Positions 15,667 through 64,000 of a DNA stretch of 64,000 nucleotides are shown in pieces. The notes beneath the pieces are model-generated. The model saw only the letters and a list, made by a program, of their open reading frames with translations. It was not told where the DNA came from and ran no database searches. The DNA comes from a virus, in IMG/VR virus record IMGVR_UViG_3300034524_000181, positions 23,060 to 87,059 of that record; one strand, given 5' to 3'. Made by a program: the position numbers and the translations under genes. Position 1 is the stretch's first letter, and every line of letters starts with the position of its first letter.

Positions 15667-17238
15667 TCAATTTTCAATGTCTATACTAATGCCTGACTTA
15701 AATTCCACTTCAACCCTGCCATCGTGAATCGTAACTTTTTCAATAAGCCTCCTTACTAACTGTTCATCATATTCCTCTAACTCGCAGGATTGCTCATTAA
15801 AGAAATCAGTCATTTCAGCTATTCGTTGCCTTTTCCCTTCTCGCTCTGCATTCTCTACAAGTGCATTTTGCTTTAACTCCCGAAGTCGATAAATTTCATC
15901 AGCCACATCTTCATAGTCATTCTTGGATTTTGCTTGTATAAGGAGCTGTTGTTGTAACTCTTCCAATTTTCTATCAATATCATCGGTGGCATTATCATTT
16001 TTTTCATTAAGTACGGTAGCTATGTTTTTCTGCAAGGTTGAGAGGAAAGGCTCTTTGTTAGCCAAAAGTTCGTTAATAGCCCTGACCACTGCTGTCTGTA
16101 ATGTCTCCTCGTTTATGGTAGGGGCCGTACATTCAGATCCTTTTTCCTCTAAACGGCTGACGCATCTCCAAACAATAGACTTGTAACCTCGGTTATTCCA
16201 GTGTACTCGTCGGTAAATATCACCGCATTGCCCGCAGTAAACAATACTCGATAAGGCATATTTACTACTATAGACTCGCTTTTTACCGCCCTTACCGCCT
16301 CGGAGATTCGCTCTTCGAACCATCTCTTCTTGAACCTGCATAAAAAGGTCACGGGGAATGATAGGTTCATGGCTGTTTTCCACATAATACTGGGGAACAA
16401 TACCATTATTCTTGACACGCTTTTTGGAAAGGAAGTCAACCGTATAGGTCTTTTGCAAGAGTGCATCCCCGATGTATTTTTCATTCTGCAGTATCTTTTT
16501 CAGTGTTTCAGGTCTCCATTTTGCTTTGCCTGCCGCTGTTAGAACACCGTCTGCTTCCAGTCCTCTTGCTATTTGTAAAAGGCTCGCACCCTCAAGGTAC
16601 TCCCTGTAAATCCGTTTAACAACCTCAGCACCCTCTGGGTCAATCACCAATTGCTTATTTTCATCTTTGGTGTATCCAAGGAAACGCTTGTGGTTGACCT
16701 GAACTTCACCTTGCTGATAGCGATACTGAATACCCAGCTTAACGTTTTGGCTTAAGGACTGGCTTTCCTGTTGGGCAAGGGATGCCATAATGGTCAGCAG
16801 GACTTCACCCTTAGAATCCATGGTGTTTATATTCTCTTTTTCAAAGAACACAGCGATGTTTTTATCCTTTAACTGACGGATGTATTTAAGGCAGTCCAAC
16901 GTGTTTCTGGCAAATCGGCTTATGGATTTTGTGATGATCATGTCAATATTGCCTGCCATGCACTCTTCAATCATGCGGTTGAATTCATCACGCTTTTTGG
17001 TATTTGTACCTGTGATACCGTCATCCGCAAAAATCCCTGCCAATTCCCATTCCTTGTTCTTCTTAATATAATTTGTATAATGCTCAATCTGAATGTCATA
17101 GCTCGAAGCCTGCTCCTCACTATCCGTTGAAACACGGCAGTAAGCAGCCACTCGAATTTTGGGTTTGCTTTCACTATTTTTATTATTTCCGACTCGTTTA
17201 ATTGCTGGAATCACTGTTACATTCCTACTTACCGCCAC
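15667..17238 (-). CDS. Large serine recombinase (site-specific integrase)
   Basis: 523 residues starting at GTG (17238), with GAGGTG seven bases upstream; an ATG is not available in a sensible position. The N-terminal resolvase domain has [11 protein letters not shown] (catalytic Ser with the preceding Arg) and [12 protein letters not shown]. The recombinase domain follows (about 190-330), then a zinc ribbon with [10 protein letters not shown]...C...C near 350-395 and a coiled-coil C-terminus. It catalyses phage integration or excision by serine chemistry. Third of three recombinase genes transcribed together. Confidence 0.9.
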
Positions 17239-17655: not shown

Positions 17656-19221
17656 CTAATTCACCAACCTTTCCTTCAATGTGATTCCGCATTTTAATTC
17701 AAATCCAACTATCTCTCGTGAATAAACAATAATCTTCTCTGCGTAATTTTCAAACAGCTCATCCTCATAGGTTTTGAGCATTTTGGACTTAGTGGTAAAC
17801 TTAAGCAGACGGTCAACCTCGTCTACTTTTGCAAAATTGCCATTGATGGAACGAGTAAGTTGATCCTTTTCAGCAAGAAGTCTTTCTCTTTCTGCTTCCA
17901 GTGAAATCTTTTCTTTATTAAACAGAGCAGGTTCCAGATATCCTTTGGCCAGTAAACCTGTCAGCATCTGGCTCTGCTCCATGTTGTTTTCAATCTTAGT
18001 TTCCAACTCTTCAATTCTGAGAAAACTCGCTGCACTATTCTGGTTACGTAACCCATCCAAAAGTGGTTTTAATATGAACTTCTGACCGAAAATGAGTTTA
18101 TTCATCATCGTAACAAATGCCGTCTTTATATCATCATCTCGAATGAACTGCATAGAACATTCCGTTATCTGGCTTATATGCTTGCTACAGCACCAAGCAA
18201 TGTATTTTCTTGTTCCAGACGAATGAATCCGTCTTTTAAAGGTACTGCCACATTCCGAGCAGATAATTTTGCTGGAGAAAGAATATCGGTTTTGATATTT
18301 GTTATTGCGCTTTTCGATGCCTTTTTCCTTTGCTCTCTGAGTGAGAATGGCATCCACAGCTTCAAAATCTTCATGGCTGATAATTGCCTCATGGTGGTTT
18401 TCTACTAGATACATATTTTTCTCACCATAATTGGTGTGCCTGTTAAAATGGCGGTCAGTATAGGTCTTTTGCAAAATAACATCGCCAGTATATTTTTCAT
18501 TGGTCAGAATCCCTCGAATGGTAGTAGCCGTCCAACGACCACCTCTTTTTGATGGAATACCCTTTTGATTAAGATCATCTGCAATTTTCTGTGTACCTTT
18601 TCCCGATAATACCTCTGCAAAAATATACTTCACAACTTCAGCCTGCTTAGGGTTTATCACCATTTGACCATCAATGTTGTCATAACCATATGGTGGATAT
18701 GAAATCTTAAAAGTTCCGTTCTGAAATCGTCTTTGAATTGCCCACTTAGTATTTTCCGAAATGGAAATGGACTCACTTTCTGCAAGCCCACTTAATATAG
18801 AAAGCATCAACTCACTTTCCATTGATTGGGTATTGATATTCTCTTTCTCAAAATAGATGTAAATACCCAGGTCCAACAGTTTACGAACCATCTCCAAACA
18901 ATCCGTAGTGTTTCTCGCAAACCTACTAATGGACTTTGTAATAATTAAGTCAATCTTCTTATTTTCACAATCTGACAGCATTCTGAGAAGTTCCGTTCGG
19001 TTTTCTTTTTTGGTGCCACTAATTCCCTCATCATAATACAAGCCAACATACTCCCATTCTGGGTTTGCCTTTATGTAAGTCTCATAATGGGATTTTTGTG
19101 CTTCTAGGCTCACTAACTGTTCATCACTGTCCGTAGAAACACGACAGTATGCGGCCACTCGTAGTTTAGGTTTGATAATCGATGCAACCTTATTTCCTTC
19201 TATTTTCGTTATCTTTTTCAT
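17656..19221 (-). CDS. Large serine recombinase (site-specific integrase)
   Basis: 521 residues from the ATG at 19221, chosen because AAGGAGG (19235-19229) lies seven bases upstream; a longer frame to 19248 lacks an RBS. Contains the catalytic [11 protein letters not shown] (about 25-35), [15 protein letters not shown], a recombinase domain with SYPPYGYDN and ILTNEKYTGDVILQKTYT, a zinc ribbon (CSECGSTFKRR...C...C) and a long C-terminal coiled coil. Paralogous to the recombinase at 15667-17238. The pair probably acts together in integration or excision of prophage 2. Confidence 0.9.
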   Translation of the reverse strand: MKKITKIEGNKVASIIKPKLRVAAYCRVSTDSDEQLVSLEAQKSHYETYIKANPEWEYVGLYYDEGISGTKKENRTELLRMLSDCENKKIDLIITKSISRFARNTTDCLEMVRKLLDLGIYIYFEKENINTQSMESELMLSILSGLAESESISISENTKWAIQRRFQNGTFKISYPPYGYDNIDGQMVINPKQAEVVKYIFAEVLSGKGTQKIADDLNQKGIPSKRGGRWTATTIRGILTNEKYTGDVILQKTYTDRHFNRHTNYGEKNMYLVENHHEAIISHEDFEAVDAILTQRAKEKGIEKRNNKYQNRYSFSSKIICSECGSTFKRRIHSSGTRKYIAWCCSKHISQITECSMQFIRDDDIKTAFVTMMNKLIFGQKFILKPLLDGLRNQNSAASFLRIEELETKIENNMEQSQMLTGLLAKGYLEPALFNKEKISLEAERERLLAEKDQLTRSINGNFAKVDEVDRLLKFTTKSKMLKTYEDELFENYAEKIIVYSREIVGFELKCGITLKERLVN

Positions 19222-19273
19222 CGCCTCACCTCCTTCTTGGTAGGTCACATATTACCTCTGAACGCCCAGTATA

Positions 19274-32858: not shown

Positions 32859-34058
32859 TTAAGCCTTCTGCTGAAGAACTTTGATGGCTTCAGGTAAGAT
32901 AAGCTTTCCATCTACACGCTGGCTCGCAAGGAAACCAACCTGCCCTGTGGTTGCAAAAAGCTCGTTTAAACGTTTGAAAGAACGTCCCTGTCTATCGGCA
33001 ATCCAATAATATCCGAAATCACCGAAGGCAATAGTTTTAGCTCCAGCTTCAATAGTAGGAGCATAAGCTGAAGTATAAACCGGACGATTTAATAAAGTAT
33101 CTGGAGTACCTGCTGTTAAAGAAGGCTGCCACAGATATTGACCTTGACCGTCTTTCAGCTTACGGATTGCCTTTACTGTTGCATCATTCATCAGGAATAC
33201 CGCGTTCTTTCTATATGGCGCTTTTAATGAGTAAACAAGATCGATAATCTCATCTGCAGTAATAGCAGTTGCAGACCCTGCTGTCACTCCAAGCTGTGCT
33301 CCGCCTGTTGCGTTGAAAATACCAGTAGGTTTTCCATCTCCATCTCCAACTAAAAAAGCTTCTTCTTCCTTAGCACCGATTCTACGGGCAAATTCAGTGG
33401 AGATATAATTCTCCAGATCAAATACACTGTCATTGAGAAGTTCATCAGAAACTTTAATCATTGTACCCAGCTTGTAAGCACCAATAGATGTCTGACCGAA
33501 TACAGAATCACTCTCATCAAACTCCTCACCTTCGTCAAGCTAAGCAGCTGTGCCTTTGGTCACCACAACCGGGATTTTACGATCACCACTTGAAGTTTGA
33601 ATAATCTTTGCAAGTTTACGGAATACATTCTCTTCCTCAAGAGTTTGAACCAAGGTGCTCTCAAATTCATCAGGAACAAGGTATCCTCCCTCAGAATCAG
33701 TGCCTACAGATAAGGCGTTTAACACATCATGACGAGGGTTTTTGCTACGCATTACGTTCCAGAATGCTTTCCTATATTCATCACTGGCTCTTCCGGTCTT
33801 TGTATCCATCCCTGGAACAGCTGGCTTTCCAGTAAGAGGCATATTTACTGGCTTATTAAGCTCTGCTTCAAGAGCCTCTTGACGTTCCAATCTTGCTATT
33901 TCCTTACCGAGATTAATAATGTCTTCTTCCATTTTGTCATAGGTTGCTGCATCTTCTGCGGATACAAGCCCATCACTACCACGCTTTGAATCAAGAAATG
34001 CCTTTGCTGCTTCCCATGCTTTTGCGCGTTTTTCACGCAGTTCAAGAATTTTACTCAT
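32859..34058 (-). pseudogene. HK97-family major capsid protein, interrupted by in-frame TAG
   Basis: One frame of 399 codons encoding an N-terminal scaffold-like delta domain (coiled coil, to about 105), then the HK97 capsid fold (SVGTDSEGGYLVPDEFESTL, RKLAKIIQTSSGDRKIPVVV, then after the TAG FDESDSVFGQTSIGAYKLGT, VSDELLNDSVFDLENYISTE, ARRIGAKEEEAFLVGDG). The TAG at 33540-33542 follows KGTAA, where relatives usually have Trp, so a single TGG to TAG change explains it. Without suppression no full-length capsid is made. The genes on both sides are intact. Confidence 0.85.
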
Positions 34059-52313: not shown

Positions 52314-55175
52314 TTAATCTTTTTTATAAAAATTACATTCAAACCCATCTGCACGAAGCAAAAGTCCCTGAGCCCAAGGCGGTGTTTGTCCCATAAGAGC
52401 ACAAATATCTGGAACGGATGTTTCTATTGGAACCTCCAAAACTACCTCATCATGGACATGCATTACAATATCAAAACCATTTTCATTCAATCTTCTCATG
52501 GCATAGCAAAGAATATCTCTCGAAATAGCCTGGACGATATTCTCTACAAACTTAGGGCCATAACTTTCAATACGCTCCCATTTCTTTGTGCCGCCAACAC
52601 CCTCATAAGTCACTGCTTCACTGCCAAAGCTGTTAATACCTATTCTTGGCTTGACATAAGTAAGTTGTCTGCCAGAAGGAAGCCATATTAAAAGCATCCC
52701 GCTACGATACTCAAAACGGATACGGTGGGTTTCGGTTCTACACCTTTCTGTTACAGCTTCTTTGACAGCACGATCAACATCCCACCAAAGTCTAACAATA
52801 TTAGGATTTGCATTCCTCCAAGCATAGACTAGCGGTTTTAATTCTTCTTCGGTAAGACCCATGTCAAGTGCACCCATTGCTTTTAATGCACCTACTGACC
52901 CTCCATAGCCACAGTTATGAACTAACACATTTGAAACAGTAAATCTATGATTCTTACCTGCATTTAATATGTCATAAACTCTAACCTTGCTTGGATTAAT
53001 CTCCAGTTCTTTCTCTGTTCTATAACTGCCATTTCTGCTGATGCTATAATTTCTTCTCTTGTCATGCCATTGGATATCATCCTTGTAACAACACTTCTTG
53101 CATAGGGCCAATTTTCTTGTTTGAAATCTGGGATTACTGATATTCTTCTGTTGGCTTGATTTATACTTCTTGGAACAAAACGAATATTGCCCTTTTCGTA
53201 ATTTCCGTCGTTGTCTATCCTGTCCATCTCTAAATCTTGGCGTACATTTTCTACATTTTTCAATATCCATATCCCCGCACTGAGAACTGAGGGAAAATTG
53301 AATTTTATACCCCTTCCCCCATATAAATGGTAATTCCTTGCCTTTGGATTCTCGCAACGCTGCTTTGCGGCAGCAAGTCTTTTCTGTAGCCACAAAGGTA
53401 TCTTCCTTTGTTGAGAGCATCTCTGGCAGCCTTTTGATTTTCCAGATTTTAAGCTGTTTAAATTTTGCCACTGTATACTGTGACAACCTGTGCATTGTGT
53501 TAGGACATAGCAATGATTCATCTTTGCATTCCATCTTTTCTGTGCACTTATTATTTTCACCCAGCCGTATTGCTCTCCTACCATTTCCGGTTTGTATGAG
53601 ATGTGCTTTGCAGGTGGCAGCTTCTCCAAATTGTATTGGCCTCGATTTCCCTTTGACCCATACAAGATGGTCTTTTGTAGCTGTAAGTCCTCCATAAGTT
53701 ATAACCTCCTTTTCACCTTTTGAAATGACACCATCATGTTTTACCCAATCTTCACCATCCCACAATTTATGTTTTGTTGTAATATCTTGAATTGGAACAA
53801 GTCCTTTATCCGTTAACACAAGACTATTATGTGCTATACAAGCCAGTTCTGCCTGCTTACCTTTCTGCCTTAAATGTCCGTTAACGCCATTCTTCTCAAC
53901 AGGAACATTAAACATTTGCGATGCTGAAGCACAATAAATGTCTCCGCCATTTGCAAACACTTCATTTCTCCATGTCTCCCCAGCAAGCCAAGCAATTACT
54001 CTAGCTTCTATTGCACTAAAGTCAGCAACGATAAACTTATATCCTTTCTTTGGCACAAAAGCGGTTCGGATTAATTCAGACAAAACTCCCGGAATAGAGT
54101 CATACAATATTTCCAAGGCATCAAAATGGCCACCTCTAACCAATCGACGTGCCTGTTCCAGATCCGACAAATGGTTCTGAGGGAGATTTTGAACTTGTAT
54201 AAGCCTTCCTGCAAATCTACCGGTTCGATTAGCACCGTAGAATTGTAGTAGTCCCCGAGCTCTTCCGTCAGTGCATACAGCATTTTCCATAGCGGTGTAT
54301 TTCTTTACACTGGATTTAGCTAGTAACTGTCTCAGTTCCAGTACTTCACTCAGATGTTCTGGAGCTTCCTTTAATAGTGCCTTAACTGATGCCTTATCAA
54401 GACTGTCTGTTTCCAGACCATTTTCTGATAGCCAGGACTTCATTTGAACAACTGAATTAGGATTTTCAAGTTCAGTTAGTTCTTTTAGTCTGCTTGTAAG
54501 CTCTTCTCGGGTTTGCTCATCACATTGGATAGCTTGCCTTACCAATTCCAAATCCAACTGAATACCTCGATCATTGATTTGCTGGTCTAGAATATAGTTC
54601 TTCCACTCCTCTTCCGGCATAGGAAATTTTTGAAGCTTTGCCTGTATGGAAAGTTCAACTTCAACGTCTCGAAGGTTATATTCTTTGAAGCTATTCCACT
54701 TCTCTGGAGCATGTTCAGGTAAATTTCGTGTACGACCACCATTCGCCCCTGTTGGTTTGCATGGAACTGAAAAATATCGGATGAGCTCTTTACCTTCTGT
54801 CAGCTTTTTCTTATCTGCTCCTGTTACAATTGCTGCCCCTTCCAAAGATAGAGGAAGTCCAAGATACGCAGACCATACCATCGTACAACGCCAAGAATCA
54901 GGTTCTAGGTGAATACCAAAGTGTTTAGATAAGCAAATCCGTTCAAACTGCGCATTGAATGCCCATTTGGTAACATTATTATCTAAAATCGCTTGCTGTA
55001 TTTCTTTAGGTATTTTTTCGCCACAAGCGAAATCCACTACTTGTACCGGCCCAGCATCTACACTGTAACCGAAAAGTAAAATCTCAAAATCCGGTGCTTC
55101 AGCGTAACGATAGACCCCGCTTTTGGCGAGGTCTACGCTACTATATGTTTCTATATCTATGCTGAGGGTTCTCAT
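52314..55175 (-). CDS. Phage family A DNA polymerase with inserted intein
   Basis: 953 residues, 644 after removal of a 309-residue intein (446-754), matching the 640 of the prophage 1 polymerase. N-terminal DnaQ-like exonuclease (LSIDIETYSSVDLAKSGVYR). Motif A ADFSAIEARVIAWLAG near 382-397. Motif B would read GKQAELA|CGYGGSVGALKAM, split exactly by the intein before CGYGG. Motif C HVHDEVVLEV near 904-913. Splicing is required for activity because the insertion lies in the nucleotide-binding motif. The intein region also encodes an out-of-frame endonuclease. Family A fused exonuclease; no 5'-3' exonuclease domain. Confidence 0.92.
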   Translation of the reverse strand: MRTLSIDIETYSSVDLAKSGVYRYAEAPDFEILLFGYSVDAGPVQVVDFACGEKIPKEIQQAILDNNVTKWAFNAQFERICLSKHFGIHLEPDSWRCTMVWSAYLGLPLSLEGAAIVTGADKKKLTEGKELIRYFSVPCKPTGANGGRTRNLPEHAPEKWNSFKEYNLRDVEVELSIQAKLQKFPMPEEEWKNYILDQQINDRGIQLDLELVRQAIQCDEQTREELTSRLKELTELENPNSVVQMKSWLSENGLETDSLDKASVKALLKEAPEHLSEVLELRQLLAKSSVKKYTAMENAVCTDGRARGLLQFYGANRTGRFAGRLIQVQNLPQNHLSDLEQARRLVRGGHFDALEILYDSIPGVLSELIRTAFVPKKGYKFIVADFSAIEARVIAWLAGETWRNEVFANGGDIYCASASQMFNVPVEKNGVNGHLRQKGKQAELACIAHNSLVLTDKGLVPIQDITTKHKLWDGEDWVKHDGVISKGEKEVITYGGLTATKDHLVWVKGKSRPIQFGEAATCKAHLIQTGNGRRAIRLGENNKCTEKMECKDESLLCPNTMHRLSQYTVAKFKQLKIWKIKRLPEMLSTKEDTFVATEKTCCRKAALRESKGKELPFIWGKGYKIQFSLSSQCGDMDIEKCRKCTPRFRDGQDRQRRKLRKGQYSFCSKKYKSSQQKNISNPRFQTRKLALCKKCCYKDDIQWHDKRRNYSISRNGSYRTEKELEINPSKVRVYDILNAGKNHRFTVSNVLVHNCGYGGSVGALKAMGALDMGLTEEELKPLVYAWRNANPNIVRLWWDVDRAVKEAVTERCRTETHRIRFEYRSGMLLIWLPSGRQLTYVKPRIGINSFGSEAVTYEGVGGTKKWERIESYGPKFVENIVQAISRDILCYAMRRLNENGFDIVMHVHDEVVLEVPIETSVPDICALMGQTPPWAQGLLLRADGFECNFYKKD
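52914..53840 (-). other. Intein in the phage DNA polymerase
   Basis: 309 codons (residues 446-754). Block A CIAHNSLVLTDKGLVPIQDI begins with the nucleophile Cys446; block B GGLTATKDHLVWV has the Thr-x-x-His (T500-H503); block F VRVYDILNAGKNHRFTVSN; block G VLVHN|C with penultimate His753, Asn754 and +1 Cys. All splicing residues are present, so it should be active. The stretch between blocks B and F in this frame is basic and Cys-rich with no recognised endonuclease domain; a separate HNH endonuclease is encoded there in another frame. Confidence 0.9.
52964..53695 (-). CDS. HNH-type homing endonuclease nested out of frame inside the intein
   Basis: 243 residues in a frame different from the polymerase. 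ATG 53695 has its own AAGGAGG (53711-53705) nine bases upstream. After a 40-residue start overlapping block B, it matches the homing-endonuclease family common in phages: MVGEQYGWVKIISAQKRW, CTGCHS and GCQRCSQQ Cys pairs, ARNYHLYGGRGIKF, then LEMDRIDNDGNYEKGNIRFV and PRSINQANRR. Its TAA (52964-52966) overlaps codons of block F. It would cut intein-less polymerase genes and drive intein spread. The true start could also be the internal Met before VGEQYGW. Confidence 0.85.
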   Translation of the reverse strand: MEDLQLQKTILYGSKGNRGQYNLEKLPPAKHISYKPEMVGEQYGWVKIISAQKRWNAKMNHCYVLTQCTGCHSIQWQNLNSLKSGKSKGCQRCSQQRKIPLWLQKRLAAAKQRCENPKARNYHLYGGRGIKFNFPSVLSAGIWILKNVENVRQDLEMDRIDNDGNYEKGNIRFVPRSINQANRRISVIPDFKQENWPYARSVVTRMISNGMTREEIIASAEMAVIEQRKNWRLIQARLEFMTY

Positions 55176-55737: not shown

Positions 55738-56865
55738 TTATACCTCCATAAAATCATTTTTTGCTGATGATGTGTTCATTTCAGGACGCTTATCTGAAAC
55801 TGGAACTAGCGTCGGTTTGCCTGGTGGCTTCATAACTAGCTCACCAAGGATTTCATTAAATTTTGACTTGCCCATCAATTTTTCCATTTCGGTAATGGTA
55901 ATGAGACTTTGCTTGTATATATCTCGGTATCCTTCATTCTTTGCTGCTTCTGCGACTGCTTCTTCATCTTTATATTTACGGTTGGAGCGACCTTCGACTA
56001 CTTTAAACCCTGGCCACTTCTTTCCATGATTAACTGCTGCATCCGTCGCATAGGTTATAATCTCATTTGCCCAGTTAGTGAGATCACCGATAGAAGATAA
56101 AATGTCAGCAATCTCTTCATCAGATAAAAGTGGTGGTAGAGCAAACTCAAACGTAGCCAGTTTCATTTTTGCTTCTGCTCTTGCTCTACATTTCACAGCT
56201 GCTCTGCAAAATTGACACTATTCACCGGGACAGTAGTTGCCGTCACCATTGAAGGCTAATTCAGCTTTAGGTTTTAAAACTTCATCAACCCACTGATACA
56301 AGTTTTCTTTTGAGACTGTGGATGTACTGTCATTTTCTCGACGGGGTTGATAAATTGTCATTGAAACCATCTCGATATCATAAATGCCATCAAATAGATC
56401 CAGTGCACCAAGGGCATAAAGTTTCATTTGAGAATTGTCTTCTGCACTGACTAAGACACCCTGACCATACTTAAAATCAAAAATGTTAAGAGTTCCATCA
56501 GCTATAATTAAACAATCCCCGGTTCCAAATCCCTCAGGTACATACTTTGAAAAGTCAAGCCGCTGTTCTATCAAGATTAGGGGATCACTACAAATTTGCT
56601 TAGCTTGCTCAATCACTTCAAGTACAAACTCCACGTAACCATCGGTATAATTGTCCATCTCATCTGAGTCGTATGGAGAGACCGGCTTTTTTGATCTCAT
56701 CTTAAGTGCCTTTCGGAGTTTGTGTTCACTTAATGCATGAGCTGCTGTACCTTCAGCTGCAGCCTCACCACTGTTGTCATCAAACTCCTGTTCTAGCCTT
56801 GCCGATGGTGTACAGTTCATCCAGCGATGAGCCCCTGACGCGGAGAGAATTGCATGTTTACTCAT
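55738..56865 (-). pseudogene. DUF2800 (Cas4/RecB-like nuclease) gene interrupted by in-frame TAG
   Basis: 375-codon frame. The N-terminal part (SASGAHRWMNCTPSARLEQE, AAAEGTAAHALSEHKL, LIIADGTLNIFDFKYGQGV) carries the PD-(D/E)xK nuclease motifs (Asp and the FDFKYG motif). At 56218-56220 a TAG follows NYCPGE, and the same frame continues CQFCRAAVKCRARAEA, so the stop lies inside the four-Cys Fe-S-type cluster. TGG to TAG or CAG to TAG would explain it. Preceding (upstream) and following genes are tightly linked. An internal start at 56196 exists but would make a fragment only. Confidence 0.85.
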
Positions 56866-58401: not shown

Positions 58402-58430
58402 TTGAATTATACTTATTTAAGTGATATAAT
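58402..58430 (+). promoter_or_regulatory. Sigma-A promoter of the ABC-3C / hsd operon
   Basis: TTGAAT (58402-58407), 17 bp, TATAAT (58425-58430). The first plus-strand gene starts about 215 bp downstream. Confidence 0.7.
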
Positions 58431-58645
58431 TTATAAAATGTAGTTAGCAGAATCAATGGTTTATCAGGGTTGTCTTTTCGGGGAATAGCATCGCTCAAAG
58501 ACCATAGTCACAAAATAAAAAATCCTTTTCCTGTAATGCTTACAAGAAAAGGATACAAGCTTTAGACCTATAAGTATTTCCCCTCGGTTTGACCTATTTT
58601 TGACCCTTTTTTGACCTTATGGTTCTGCAGAAAGGGATGGTCGTC
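58431..58645. other. Leader region of the defence operon
   Basis: No gene. Holds a strong hairpin ATCCTTTTC-CTGTAA-TGC-TTACA-A-GAAAAGGAT (58522-58554) with a T-tract only on the minus strand, and three TTTGACC units at 58588-58617 (TTTGACCTATTTTTGACCC and TTTTTTGACC). Confidence 0.55.
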
Positions 58646-59662
58646 GTGGGTAAATTATGCTTTGGTTCATATGCTAAAATTGTTCAAAAATCAATTAAAG
58701 AGCCTAATAGTCAAAAACGTGTTGCTGAATTGTTACTAGGTCTAATTACTGACAATGAAGATGTTACAAACCAAGAAGGTGACCCTTTTGTAGTTACTGA
58801 CAAGCTTGCCAGTGACTTATTTAACTGCAAAATTAATATGCGTAAAAAAATTAAAGAAGCATCTAGCTCCCAATTAATTGTTAATTCTGCTCATGACTAT
58901 TTTGAAGATGTGGTCATGCCTGAAATTATGCCTGAAATGATACAAGACATGATTGCTGAATTAGTAGACCTCATATCAAGTGACGATAGTGTTCCTCAGG
59001 ATAAAAAAGATGAATTCTTAAAATTTGCTAATCCGACCTCCATTCATGTCTTTTTGTCTGACTTATTTTTGTACGTAATAAAAAAGGATAATAAAATTTC
59101 TAAGAAGTCACCAGCTCCCTTAAATAGTAAAATGCCTTCTGTTCTTAGTGATGTAAAAAAGCTAAAGGAGCCTATTGAAAAAATCCCTCCTAGACAACCA
59201 GAACCTATTACACCACCAGAAGAAATAGAAAATCATGAGATGGTTTACGTCAGAGAATTATTAGCCGCTTATGCTGATGCTGAAGGTATTGATGAGTTGC
59301 CAAAAGAATCCTTAGAAAGTTTTCCAAAGTATGAGAAGGACTTTAAGCGTAGGAGAAAAGACTACTATGCAGCTGAAAGTATTAGACGTGGTGCAAGAGA
59401 TGTATTCGGAGAAACGAATCCGGATCATTTTGAAATATTAAAAGAAGAAACATATGACGGTGTCATAGATGTTTATGAAAATGAGTATCCTCATGGTCTC
59501 GCTAGGCTAAAAGGGGTTATGTCTCAAGCAACTCTTATTCGAGTTGATAAATGCGTATATAGCCAAATTCCTAATTGGATCGGCGCTAGTGAAAAGAAAG
59601 GTGTCTGCCACATTCTTGTAAATGACGGCAAACTTAGGGGGTGGGTTGAAACCGATGAGTAA
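58646..59662 (+). CDS. ABC-three-component system effector/CTD protein
   Basis: 338 residues from GTG 58646 (MGKLCFGSYAKIVQKSIKEP), preferred because AAAGGGATGG precedes it; upstream ATG at 58619 lacks an RBS. The N-terminal 150 residues are an unrecognised helical domain (acidic EDVVMPEIMPEMIQDMIAEL). The C-terminal 140 residues (YAAESIRRGARDVFGETNPD, HGLARLKGVMSQATLIRVDK, EKKGVCHILVNDGKLRGWVE) are the conserved C-terminal domain of ABC-3C effectors. First gene of the three-component operon; the middle component starts before its end (ATGAGTAA). Confidence 0.75.
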   Translation: MGKLCFGSYAKIVQKSIKEPNSQKRVAELLLGLITDNEDVTNQEGDPFVVTDKLASDLFNCKINMRKKIKEASSSQLIVNSAHDYFEDVVMPEIMPEMIQDMIAELVDLISSDDSVPQDKKDEFLKFANPTSIHVFLSDLFLYVIKKDNKISKKSPAPLNSKMPSVLSDVKKLKEPIEKIPPRQPEPITPPEEIENHEMVYVRELLAAYADAEGIDELPKESLESFPKYEKDFKRRRKDYYAAESIRRGARDVFGETNPDHFEILKEETYDGVIDVYENEYPHGLARLKGVMSQATLIRVDKCVYSQIPNWIGASEKKGVCHILVNDGKLRGWVETDE

Positions 59663-60104
59663 GTTGTATAATACGCCATTCGAAGCATCACTACGTATAT
59701 TGCTTATACTAGAGTCTTCAAAAAATCAGAACTTTAGTTTGGACTTGCTTACTGCCATAGATTTTATTTCACTTTACGGAAGAGATTTTGGTCTTTCTAA
59801 TGAAAATCTGCATGGAGATAATAGTTATAAGTTCAGTGAATTCGCCTTGCGCCGCGAACTCATAAAAACAGCAATTAAGCATCTTGTTCTTGATGACCTC
59901 ATAAAAGTTAGCTCGACCAAACAAGGTTTTACATATTCCGCTAATCAAAAAGGCTTAAATTTTAGCGAACATTTATCAAGTGATTATGCTAACACATATC
60001 GTCAAGCTGTTTATTTAGTAAGGGGATTTATATCTAATAAAACAGAGCGTGAAGTTTTAGAATATATAAATAAACGCTCCATATATTCGTTGCGGGAGGA
60101 TTAA
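59655..60104 (+). CDS. ABC-three-component system middle component
   Basis: 149 residues: MSKLYNTPFEASLRILLILE, IDFISLYGRDFGLSNENLHG, RELIKTAIKHLVLDDLIKVS, and YANTYRQAVYLVRGFISNKT. A winged-helix-type middle protein that bridges effector and ATPase in ABC-3C systems. Start overlaps the effector stop by eight bases (ATGAGTAA), indicating coupling. The ATPase follows four bases later. Confidence 0.78.
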   Translation: MSKLYNTPFEASLRILLILESSKNQNFSLDLLTAIDFISLYGRDFGLSNENLHGDNSYKFSEFALRRELIKTAIKHLVLDDLIKVSSTKQGFTYSANQKGLNFSEHLSSDYANTYRQAVYLVRGFISNKTEREVLEYINKRSIYSLRED

Positions 60105-60108
60105 TGAA

Positions 60109-61887
60109 ATGACTAACTTATATATAAAAAAGCTAATTGTTTCCGGTGGTGGTAAAGAGCCTTCTGTTTTGGAATTTGATGAAGGATTAAATATTATATG
60201 TGGACCATCGAATACTTGAAAAAGTTATATCTTAGAATGTATCGACTACTTATTTGGCAGTGATAAAATTCGTTTTGATAGAAGCACCGGCTACAATAAT
60301 ATCAAATTAATTGTTGCTACAGAAAGCGGTAGTATTACATTGGATCGTGAATTAGATTCAAATAAAATTAGAGTTCATAGCGACAATCACAAGATTGAAT
60401 CTGGAGAATATAGAACTAGTGGAAAAAAGAATATCAGTGATGTATGGTTAAGTCTTATAGGTATTGATGAGGAGCGTTTTATTATAAAAAACTCAAGGTA
60501 TGATAAACAACGTCTTACCTGGAGGACTATTTCACATATGTTTCTCATTAAGGAATCTATTGTTTTTCAAGAAGCTTCTATTATATTGCCAAGGCAAAAT
60601 ACAGCACATACCGCAGCTCTTTCTACCCTCTTTTTCTTAATTACTGGTCAAGATTTTGCTGAATCCGACCCAAAGGAAGAAAAAAAGATAAAAGAAGCTA
60701 GAAAAAAGGCTGTTGCTGATTATATTAATAAAAGGTTAAATGATTTTGCTGAACGTAAAAATGAGCTTAACAAGCTTCCAGTTGGAGATGAAGAGTACCT
60801 TCAAGAAAAAGTAGAAAATATACTTGTTGAAATCGCTAAAACAGAAGAAAAAATTGCTGATTCAGTTAACCGCAGCAAACAACTTCTAAAGGAAATTTAT
60901 GTTGTCAGCGATCAATTGGCTGAATGTAATACGTTGTATAACCGGTATAAGGCTTTGAAGACTCAGTATGCATCTGATATTAAAAGATTAACTTTTATTG
61001 TTGAAGGAGAGCTGCATAAAGGGAAAATGCATGCAAATTCTAAATGTCCTTTCTGTGACAGCAGTATATCCTCTTCTCAAAAAGAAGCTTCTTATGCTGA
61101 AACATCACATGCTGAGCTACATAGGATACAACTTCAATTAGATGATTTATTAGAAGCTGAGCAAGATCTAATAAAAGAACGGTCTACACTAGAATCTAAA
61201 CTTGCTAGATTAAATAATGAAAAATCAGATGTTGAATTACTCATTAATGATGAATTAAAACCCAAAATTGCTGGGCTTAGATCAACTTTATATGATTATC
61301 GAAGAGCCATTGAAATTCGAAATGAATCAGTTGTTATTACCAAATATGAAACAACAATGAAATCCGAATTGTTTGAAGCAATGATGGAAGATGAATCAGC
61401 GGTAGAGTTTAAAATCAAGAACTACTTTAATAGCGATATCATAGCAACATTGGACATCTATCTAAATAGAATCCTAGAAGCTTGTAAGTTTGATGGTTAT
61501 AGCTCTGCTTATTTTGATTCAAGTTCCTTTGACATATTTATCAACGGAACTCCCAAAGACACATATGGCAAAGGATATCGCGCTTTTTTAAATACTGTAC
61601 TTGCCATTTCGCTTATGGAGTATTTAACCGATAAAGGTAAATATGCACCTGAGCTATTGATTATTGACACCCCTATTCTTTCTCTGAAGGAAAAAGAAGA
61701 TGGTGTGGCATCTGACACAATGAAAGCTGCATTATTCCAGTACCTATTAGACAACCAAGGTCATGGTCAAGTTATTATTGTAGAAAATGATATTCCTGAT
61801 TTAGATTATAGCAACGCAAATGTGATTCAGTTTACTAAAGATGAATCGTATGGTCGTTACGGATTTTTGAATGATGTACGCCAATAA
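60109..61887 (+). pseudogene. ABC-3C SMC-like ATPase (DUF2326-like), interrupted by TGA in Walker A
   Basis: One 592-codon frame. Codons 1-36 give MTNLYIKKLIVSGGG...LNIICGPSNT; codon 37 (60217-60219) is TGA; then KSYILECIDYLFGSDKIRF. The Walker A should read GPSNTGKS, so GGA to TGA removes the central Gly. Downstream are a long coiled coil (about 185-370) with a CPFCDSSI zinc-hook-like motif near 315 and the Walker B/D-loop ELLIIDTPILSLKEKE near 520. The same frame is otherwise intact. It should be null unless suppressed. Confidence 0.85.
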
Positions 61888-61910: not shown

Positions 61911-62123
61911 ATGAGCAAAGATCAAAATATAGAAAAATGGTCTTCAATGGATATTATTACAGATTATCTGGGTGTAAGTCGTGAAACTGTACTGCAGTGG
62001 ATCAACAATCGCAACATGCCAGCCCATAAGGTAGGTAGACTATGGAAATTTAAAATTTCCGAAGTTGATGAATGGATTCGGTCCGGTGGTGCAGCTGAGA
62101 AAAGTGAAACAGATGATGTTTAA
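61911..62123 (+). CDS. Excisionase-family HTH protein
   Basis: 70 residues from ATG 61911 (GGAGG lies eight bases upstream; an ATG at 61896 is within the RBS region). Winged-helix/MerR-like: SMDIITDYLGVSRETVLQWI then NRNMPAHKVGRLWKFKISEV, DEWIRSGG. Such proteins are often next to type I restriction genes and may regulate or modulate them. It lies 23 bases after the ATPase and 51 before hsdM. Confidence 0.8.
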   Translation: MSKDQNIEKWSSMDIITDYLGVSRETVLQWINNRNMPAHKVGRLWKFKISEVDEWIRSGGAAEKSETDDV

Positions 62124-62174: not shown

Positions 62175-64000
62175 ATGGATAACCAAACCTATAATTCAAT
62201 ATTAAACTTTATTTGGCAATAGCAGACGACTGTCTACGAGATGTATATGTACGAGGTAAATATAGAGATGTAATCTTGCCTATGACAGTAATCCGTAGAT
62301 TAGATGCTGTATTAGAGGAAACAAAACCTGCTGTTCTTGAAATGAAAAAGAAACTAGACGAGGCAGGCATCACCAATCAGACTGCTGCACTATGCAATGC
62401 TGCTGGACAGTCATTTTGCAACAGTTCACCTTTTTGCTTGCGCGATTTAACCTCTAGAGCAAAAAATCAAACTTTAAAAGCAGATTTTATAGCCTATTTG
62501 GATGGCTTCTCTCCTAATGTTCAGGAAATTTTAGATAGATTCAAATTTCGCAATCAGATAGACACTATGATTGATGCAGATATACTTGGCGCTGTTATAG
62601 AAAAATTTGTTTCACCTACAATTAACTTAAGCCCTAACCCTGTTTATAAAGATGATGAAAAGAAGGAAATCCGTTTACCTGGTCTTGATAATCATACCAT
62701 GGGGGTAATTTTTGAAGAACTTATTCGCCGCTTTAATGAAGAAAATAATGAAGAGGCAGGAGAACACTTTACCCCTCGTGATGTTGTCGAATTAATGGCC
62801 GATCTTATTTTTGTACCAGTAGCGGATAAAATTATGGATGCAACTTACTCTTGCTACGATGGGGCTTGCGGTACAGGTGGTATGCTTACCGTAGCCCAAG
62901 ACCGTCTGATGGAACTTGCTGAAAAAGCTGGTAAGAAAGTATCTATTCATCTTTTTGGCCAGGAAATAAATCCTGAAACGTATGCTATAGCTAAGTCTGA
63001 TTTATTATTACAAGGACAAGGAGATCAAGCGGACCATATTGGGTTTGGTTCCACCCTTTCTAACGACCAATTTCCTACCTACCAGTTTGACTTCATGCTA
63101 AGTAATCCGCCATATGGCAAATCGTGGAAAGTTGACGCAGATAAACTCGGTGGCAAGAAAGATATTATGGACAGTCGTTTTGTGACCAACTTTGCTGATG
63201 ATCCTAATTTCAGTATGATTCCAAGAACAAGTGACGGACAGTTACTTTTCCTACTAAACAATGTTGCAAAAATGAAGAAAACTACCGAGTTAGGTAGCCG
63301 TATCGCAGAAGTGCATAACGGGTCTTCCTTATTTACCGGTGATGCCGGACAAGGTGAAAGTAATGCCCGACGCTTTATGATAGAGAACGACCTTGTAGTG
63401 GCGATTATTGCCCTACCAGACAATATGTTCTATAACACAGGAATTGGCACTTTTATTTGGATTCTTTCTAACAATAAAGCTGAACACAGAAAGGGTAAGA
63501 TTCAACTTATAGATGCTACTTCATTAAAGTCGCCTCTTCGTAAAAACTTAGGTAAAAAGAATTGTGAATTGACTCCTGAAATCAGACAACAAATTTTGGA
63601 GTTATATATGGCTTTTGAGGAAAATGAGTATAGCAAAATTTTTGATAACAACGAGTTTGGTTATTGGAAAGTAACTGTTCTTCGCCCTGCATACAACGAA
63701 GATGGCACTATTCAAAAAGATAAAAAAGGAAAACCTGTTGTCAATAAAGAGCTAACAGATACAGAACAAATACCTTTTATCTATGAAGGTGGCATCGAAG
63801 CATTCTTTGAAAAAGAAGTAAAGCCCTTTGCTCCCGATGCATGGATTGACGAAAAGCAGACAAAAATCGGTTATGAAATTAGTTTTACAAAATATTTCTA
63901 TAAACCGATTCAGCTAAGAACACTAGAAGAAATAACAGTAGACATTCGTTCACTCGAAGAAGAGACAGACGGATTACTTGCTGAGATTATAGGGGGTTGA
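62175..64000 (+). pseudogene. hsdM: Type I restriction-modification methyltransferase subunit, frameshifted at start
   Basis: An RBS (AAAGGAAG) and ATG 62175 begin MDNQTYNSILNFIW, after which a one-base deletion around 62212-62214 (GGG to GG) moves the frame; the remainder runs IADDCLRDVYVRGKYRDVIL to a TGA at 63998. The main frame has motif I YDGACGTGGMLTVAQDRLM near 225, motif IV FMLSNPPYGKSW near 305 and the HsdM N-terminal helical domain. TTG 62213 could restart translation, leaving a loss of only about 13 residues. It partners HsdS/HsdR, which would lie beyond the window. Confidence 0.8.

What the first reader, a model, noticed from the sequence alone, without database searches (positions are those of the whole stretch)
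60109..61887. ABC-3C conflict system with a stop codon inside the ATPase Walker A motif
The effector, middle component and SMC-like ATPase form a tight operon behind a clear promoter, next to a type I restriction system. The ATPase frame is intact except for TGA at the central Gly of GPSNT-G-KS. Loss of the ATPase with retention of the other two components is intriguing: either the system has just been inactivated, or this is a sequencing error.
Basis: partly seen in the sequence, partly recalled or inferred. Interest (0 to 1): 0.65.

Follow-up and report, generated by a model that had tools for sequence, protein, structure and literature searches.

The report
Broken Lamassu defence operon in prophage
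A known type of anti-phage defence operon (Lamassu), carried by a prophage, has a stop codon in the ATP-binding site of its essential motor protein; all close relatives are intact and the same prophage record has other broken genes, so this looks like an ordinary recent inactivation or a sequence error rather than a new mechanism.

Summary
The stop is real in the record: TGA at 60217-60219 interrupts an otherwise open 592-codon frame at the central Gly of the Walker A motif GPSNT-G-KS. The operon is a Lamassu (ABC-3C) system: LmuA with CTD6 (58646-59662), LmuC/MC2 (59655-60104) and LmuB (60109-61887). Four loci 87-97% identical in DNA, in the same gene arrangement, encode intact LmuB with Gly there; that Gly is invariant in 13 of 13 relatives. 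In 391 genomes of one class, 11 full-length LmuB were intact and one locus was heavily broken. The window is the end of an 87-kb virus record and carries further lesions against relatives: nonsense codons in the major head protein and a phage exonuclease, and a frameshift at the start of hsdM. No suppressor tRNA and no sign of recoding were found. Downstream re-initiation would omit Walker A, so this copy should be dead. Best reading: recent inactivation in a decaying prophage; error in the record is the main rival and needs reads. Ordinary. In passing: the polA intein hides an HNH-like gene in another frame, with the intein frame kept open in 13 relatives; this is more interesting than the finding.

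The parts
58402..58430 (+). promoter-like site (TTGAAT-17-TATAAT with TG before the -10)
   Evidence: consensus scan, 10 of 12 matches; total sites in the region not above shuffles
58646..59662 (+). lmuA, putative effector; N-terminal helical domain of unknown activity plus CTD6; GTG start
   Evidence: PADLOC LmuA E 3e-74, Pfam CTD6 E 3e-46; intact; start from comparison with L002-L005
59655..60104 (+). lmuC, middle component MC2
   Evidence: Pfam MC2 E 3e-49, PADLOC LmuC E 1e-54; intact
60109..61887 (+). lmuB, SMC/Rad50-like ATPase, interrupted by one in-frame stop
   Evidence: PADLOC LmuB E 6e-192 on the part after the stop; intact 592-aa orthologues in L002-L005
60217..60219 (+). TGA in place of the Walker A central Gly codon
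61045..61056 (+). zinc-hook motif CPFC of LmuB, retained
   Evidence: alignment
61654..61674 (+). Walker B LLIIDTP of LmuB, retained; S/T follows D in this clade
   Evidence: alignment
61911..62123 (+). small HTH/excisionase-like gene between lmuB and hsdM, conserved in L002-L005
   Evidence: Pfam HTH_17, NCBIfam excise; alignment
62175..62222 (+). stub of hsdM, frameshifted after 15 codons
   Evidence: comparison with L004
62213..64000 (+). hsdM remainder, type I methyltransferase, open frame of 595 aa
   Evidence: Pfam N6_Mtase and HsdM_N
32859..34058 (-). phage major head protein gene interrupted by TAG at 33540-33542
   Evidence: phrog_10 on both halves; 7 of 7 other contigs have Trp there
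55738..56865 (-). phage exonuclease gene interrupted by TAG at 56218-56220
   Evidence: phrog_69 on both halves; 375-aa intact frame in both relatives

Best explanation
A prophage-borne Lamassu (ABC-3C) defence operon has been inactivated recently by a single nonsense substitution in lmuB. Only a 36-residue peptide ending just before the P-loop lysine would be made. The first common start codon downstream (TTG 60340) lies past Walker A, so no ATP-binding LmuB can be made. Since LmuB is the proposed DNA sensor and its ATP binding is needed for activity in tested Lamassu systems, LmuA and LmuC should be left without a sensor or activator and the system should be silent. The lesion is one of several scattered ones in an ageing prophage. 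Shown here: the stop, intact relatives, invariance of the Gly, the other lesions, no second LmuB in the record. Inferred: loss of function, recency, and that the stop exists in the organism and not only in the record.
For: Single stop in an otherwise open frame. Intact orthologues in the same arrangement at 87-97% DNA identity. Gly invariant in 13/13. Other amino-acid changes private to this LmuB lie mostly at variable positions, so the gene was under constraint until recently. Other lesions in the record against two relatives: head protein, exonuclease, and hsdM against L004; the sister prophage L004 has its hsdM interrupted by an IS110-type insertion. Right-arm genes of this record have a higher private missense:synonymous ratio (33:46) than G002 (72:187, Fisher p 0.026) or G003 (12:33, p 0.12). 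No other LmuB in the record. A broken LmuB locus also occurs in one of 391 surveyed genomes, G235. ATP binding by LmuB and all components are reported essential wherever tested (PMC10586767).
Against: No reads were available, so error in the record is not excluded. The hsdM shift lies where L004 has a run of four G, a place prone to indel errors. Apart from the stop, LmuB shows little decay. The rate comparison is weak, the split into arms was made after seeing the data, and it is significant against only one relative.
Confidence: 0.62

Rival explanations
1. The stop codon, and perhaps the other lesions, are base-call or assembly errors in a public virus record; the real operon is intact and works as an ordinary Lamassu.
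For: Each lesion is a single-base difference or a one-base shift. No other fetched viral contig has the lmuB TGA: the only other exact match to the surrounding 30-mer has a sense codon. 7 of 7 other contigs are intact at the head-protein codon. A head-protein nonsense codon should be lethal for a phage, so such an allele should be rare. The rest of lmuB looks constrained.
Against: In the low-divergence structural block the record has very few private changes (mostly 0-2 per gene), so it is not error-rich overall. Random single-base changes give roughly 17 missense for each nonsense, so three nonsense errors would imply dozens of erroneous missense changes.
Confidence: 0.33
2. The UGA is read through or recoded (suppressor tRNA, or UGA as Gly), giving low-level functional LmuB, possibly as a throttle on a toxic system.
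For: The codon replaces a glycine, and UGA is read as Gly in some candidate phyla (general knowledge).
Against: No tRNA gene in the 87-kb record. TGA ends 26 of 79 longest non-overlapping frames and TAG 16. The other in-frame stops are TAG at Trp positions, so no single reassignment fits. Relatives use a sense codon.
Confidence: 0.03
3. LmuA plus LmuC have a job without LmuB and the loss of the ATPase is adaptive.
For: Both remaining genes are intact and nearly unchanged. The LmuA N-terminal domain also occurs in proteins with CTD11, two of them with weak HNH matches, for which no ABC partner was looked for.
Against: The lesion is young, so the intactness of the neighbours says little. Nearly all LmuB relatives surveyed are intact. 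All components are reported essential (PMC10586767).
Confidence: 0.02

Closest known systems
Lamassu / ABC-3C / DdmABC defence systems (LmuA, LmuC, LmuB)
   Same: Gene order, family matches of all three proteins, Walker A, zinc-hook CPxC, short SMC-like ATPase of about 592 aa
   Different: LmuB carries a stop codon; LmuA has no recognised catalytic domain; Walker B has S/T after the Asp, where PMC10586767 describes Glu to Gln
Prophage Lamassu of the Thermotalea metallivorans contig (L003) and of IMGVR_UViG_648028059 (L004)
   Same: Same position in the prophage, same upstream neighbours, 89% and 97% DNA identity
   Different: lmuB intact; L003 has a different neighbour after the HTH gene, and L004 has hsdM interrupted by an IS110-type element
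Decayed defence genes and prophage pseudogenes in general
   Same: Scattered nonsense and frameshift lesions in an integrated element
   Different: Nothing notable

Membership tests
Lamassu (ABC-3C) | SMC/Rad50-like ATPase LmuB with Walker A, Walker B and usually a zinc hook | tested here: inconclusive
   Family match E 6e-192, Walker B and CPFC present, but Walker A is interrupted by a stop, so homologous yet not expressed whole
Lamassu (ABC-3C) | LmuA effector with an ABC-3C C-terminal domain | tested here: met
   CTD6 E 3e-46, LmuA E 3e-74
Lamassu (ABC-3C) | LmuA N-terminal catalytic domain | tested here: inconclusive
   No Pfam match for the N-terminal part and only weak, unrelated PDB sequence matches; AlphaFold model poor, mean pLDDT 48
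Lamassu (ABC-3C) | Middle component LmuC/MC between effector and ATPase | tested here: met
   MC2 E 3e-49
Lamassu (ABC-3C) | Anti-phage or anti-plasmid activity needing all components | not testable with these tools
   Needs bench assays
Recoded UGA (Gly) gene | Reassigned codon used consistently, with a cognate tRNA | tested here: not met
   TGA is a common terminator, no tRNA in the record, other in-frame stops are TAG

The most novel reading that the evidence does not exclude
The nonsense allele is tolerated because LmuA-LmuC have an LmuB-independent role, or because rare read-through gives a throttled Lamassu; the stop would then be selected and not just decay.
Probability: 0.03. Interest if true: 0.5.

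Novelty: new member of a known kind. Interest (0 to 1): 0.12.

Why it matters
Mainly as a clean negative: the operon is a known defence type and the stop is explained by ordinary inactivation or error. It is a small data point that defence cargo of prophages decays, and, if real, that an intact LmuA without its ATPase is tolerated, which bears on whether LmuA is toxic when not held by LmuB.

Tried and rejected
Recoding or suppression: rejected. A second LmuB copy in the record: none. Downstream re-initiation giving a working ATPase: the first common start after the stop is TTG 60340, past Walker A. The same stop in other viral contigs: none; one contig matched the surrounding sequence, with a sense codon. 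Effector identity of LmuA: no PDB relative (weak matches to mitoribosomal mL50 and others look like chance); AlphaFold model too poor to search with. A fourth nonsense difference (23876) falls upstream of a usable ATG and was discounted. Alignment A1 of LmuA with genome-search hits was made but not sent for structure prediction, because that tool restricts which loci may be used.

Full report
Observation. The frame 60109-61887 is open except for a TGA at codon 37, in the P-loop GPSNT-G-KS. The upstream genes are lmuA (CTD6) and lmuC (MC2), and the interrupted gene is lmuB; all three match PADLOC Lamassu models strongly, and Pfam names the first two as ABC-3C components. The genes overlap or abut, and a promoter-like site with an extended -10 lies at 58402-58430, though promoter-like matches in the region are no more frequent than in shuffles.

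Relatives. Two genome contigs (Bacillus methanolicus PB1, Thermotalea metallivorans) and two IMG/VR contigs carry the same operon in the same place, 87-97% identical in DNA. All have an intact 592-codon lmuB with Gly at the position of the stop. Among 13 LmuB proteins, down to about 22% identity, the Gly is invariant; Walker B and the zinc hook are retained in the window copy, and its private replacements fall mostly at variable positions. In 391 genomes of one class, 11 full-length LmuB matches of this family had no stops and one locus (G235) was heavily broken.

Setting. The window is bases 23060-87059 of an 87,059-base virus record. The record holds one phage region collinear with G002 and G003 (about 38.8-85.4 kb of the record) and, before it, a second one with genes about 68-70% identical to those of G003. 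Reading relatives' genes onto the record shows further lesions: the major head protein (TAG for Trp at 33540-33542), a phage exonuclease (TAG for Trp at 56218-56220) and a 1-base shift after codon 15 of hsdM. At the head-protein codon, 7 of 7 other viral contigs with the same flanks have Trp. In L004, hsdM is interrupted by an IS110-type element. The defence arm is thus damaged in more than one member of this prophage family.

Real decay or error. Private changes were counted in three-way codon comparisons. In the structural block the record has very few private changes, so it is not error-rich. In the right arm (exonuclease to HTH gene) private missense to synonymous is 33:46 here, against 72:187 in G002 (p 0.026) and 12:33 in G003 (p 0.12). 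This leans to relaxed selection, but it is weak, and the split into arms was made after seeing the data. Without reads the error reading cannot be excluded; I give it 0.33.

Function. [quoted passage not shown] A peptide of 36 residues, or re-initiation at TTG 60340, cannot supply a P-loop. The record has no other LmuB and no tRNA gene; its stop-codon use is ordinary. The system in this copy should be inactive; that is inference. The LmuA N-terminal part is a domain (helical in a low-confidence model) also found in proteins with CTD11, two of them with weak HNH matches; its activity is unknown and the structure model was poor.

In passing. The phage polA gene (52314-55175, minus) contains an intein of 309 codons (52914-53840; named and bounded by motif, by eye) absent from L004. 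Inside it lies a 243-codon ORF (52964-53695, minus) in another frame, HNH-like by eye, with a strong ribosome-binding site (AAGGAGG). In 13 relatives fetched by that ORF, the host-gene frame has no stop across it, while synonymous-codon shuffles give about 9-14 stops (2.2 in L019) and the third frame has 6-22. Between divergent copies the HNH frame is 57-63% identical and the intein frame 32-38%, much like the third frame: the intein frame is kept open but its sequence is hardly conserved. One relative (L020) has the element in a helicase gene. The nearest published case found is the ShiLan out-of-frame HNH insertion (PMC11855218), which has no detectable splicing domains. No Pfam or NCBIfam HNH or intein model supports the naming beyond one weak intein-containing match.

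Verdict. Ordinary: a Lamassu operon inactivated in a prophage, or an error in the record.

Noticed in passing
52914-53840 (-), with ORF 52964-53695 (-): Intein in phage polA with a 243-aa HNH-like endonuclease ORF nested in a different frame, with its own Shine-Dalgarno sequence. In 13 relatives the intein frame stays stop-free across it (about 9-14 stops expected in most), while only the HNH frame is conserved in sequence. Possibly a distinct class of intein; nearest precedent found is ShiLan (PMC11855218).
   Followed up: partly
L020:3662-6421: The same kind of intein with a nested HNH-like ORF sits in a DEAD/ResIII helicase gene instead of polA.
   Followed up: partly
33540-33542 in 32859-34058 (-): Nonsense codon in the phage major head protein gene; 7 of 7 other contigs have Trp.
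   Followed up: yes
56218-56220 in 55738-56865 (-): Nonsense codon in a phage exonuclease gene that is a single 375-aa frame in relatives.
   Followed up: yes
62175-62222 (+): hsdM frameshifted after 15 codons; the remainder is open from TTG 62213. In L004 the same gene is interrupted by an IS110-type transposase (L004:10591-11523).
   Followed up: yes
58646-59100 (+); L085, L086, L087, L088, L089: The LmuA N-terminal domain recurs in other proteins, four of five with CTD11 and two of those with weak HNH matches, and L085 matches HamA weakly: a shared domain of unknown function.
   Followed up: partly
61654-61674 (+): LmuB of this clade has Ser or Thr after the Walker B Asp, where the literature describes Glu to Gln.
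   Followed up: no
15667-17238 and 17656-19248 (-): Two adjacent large serine recombinase genes between two phage regions of the record.
   Followed up: no
58522-58554: Inverted repeat of 15 pairs in the leader between the promoter-like site and lmuA, terminator-like on the minus strand; followed by TTTGACC direct repeats at about 58588-58616.
   Followed up: no
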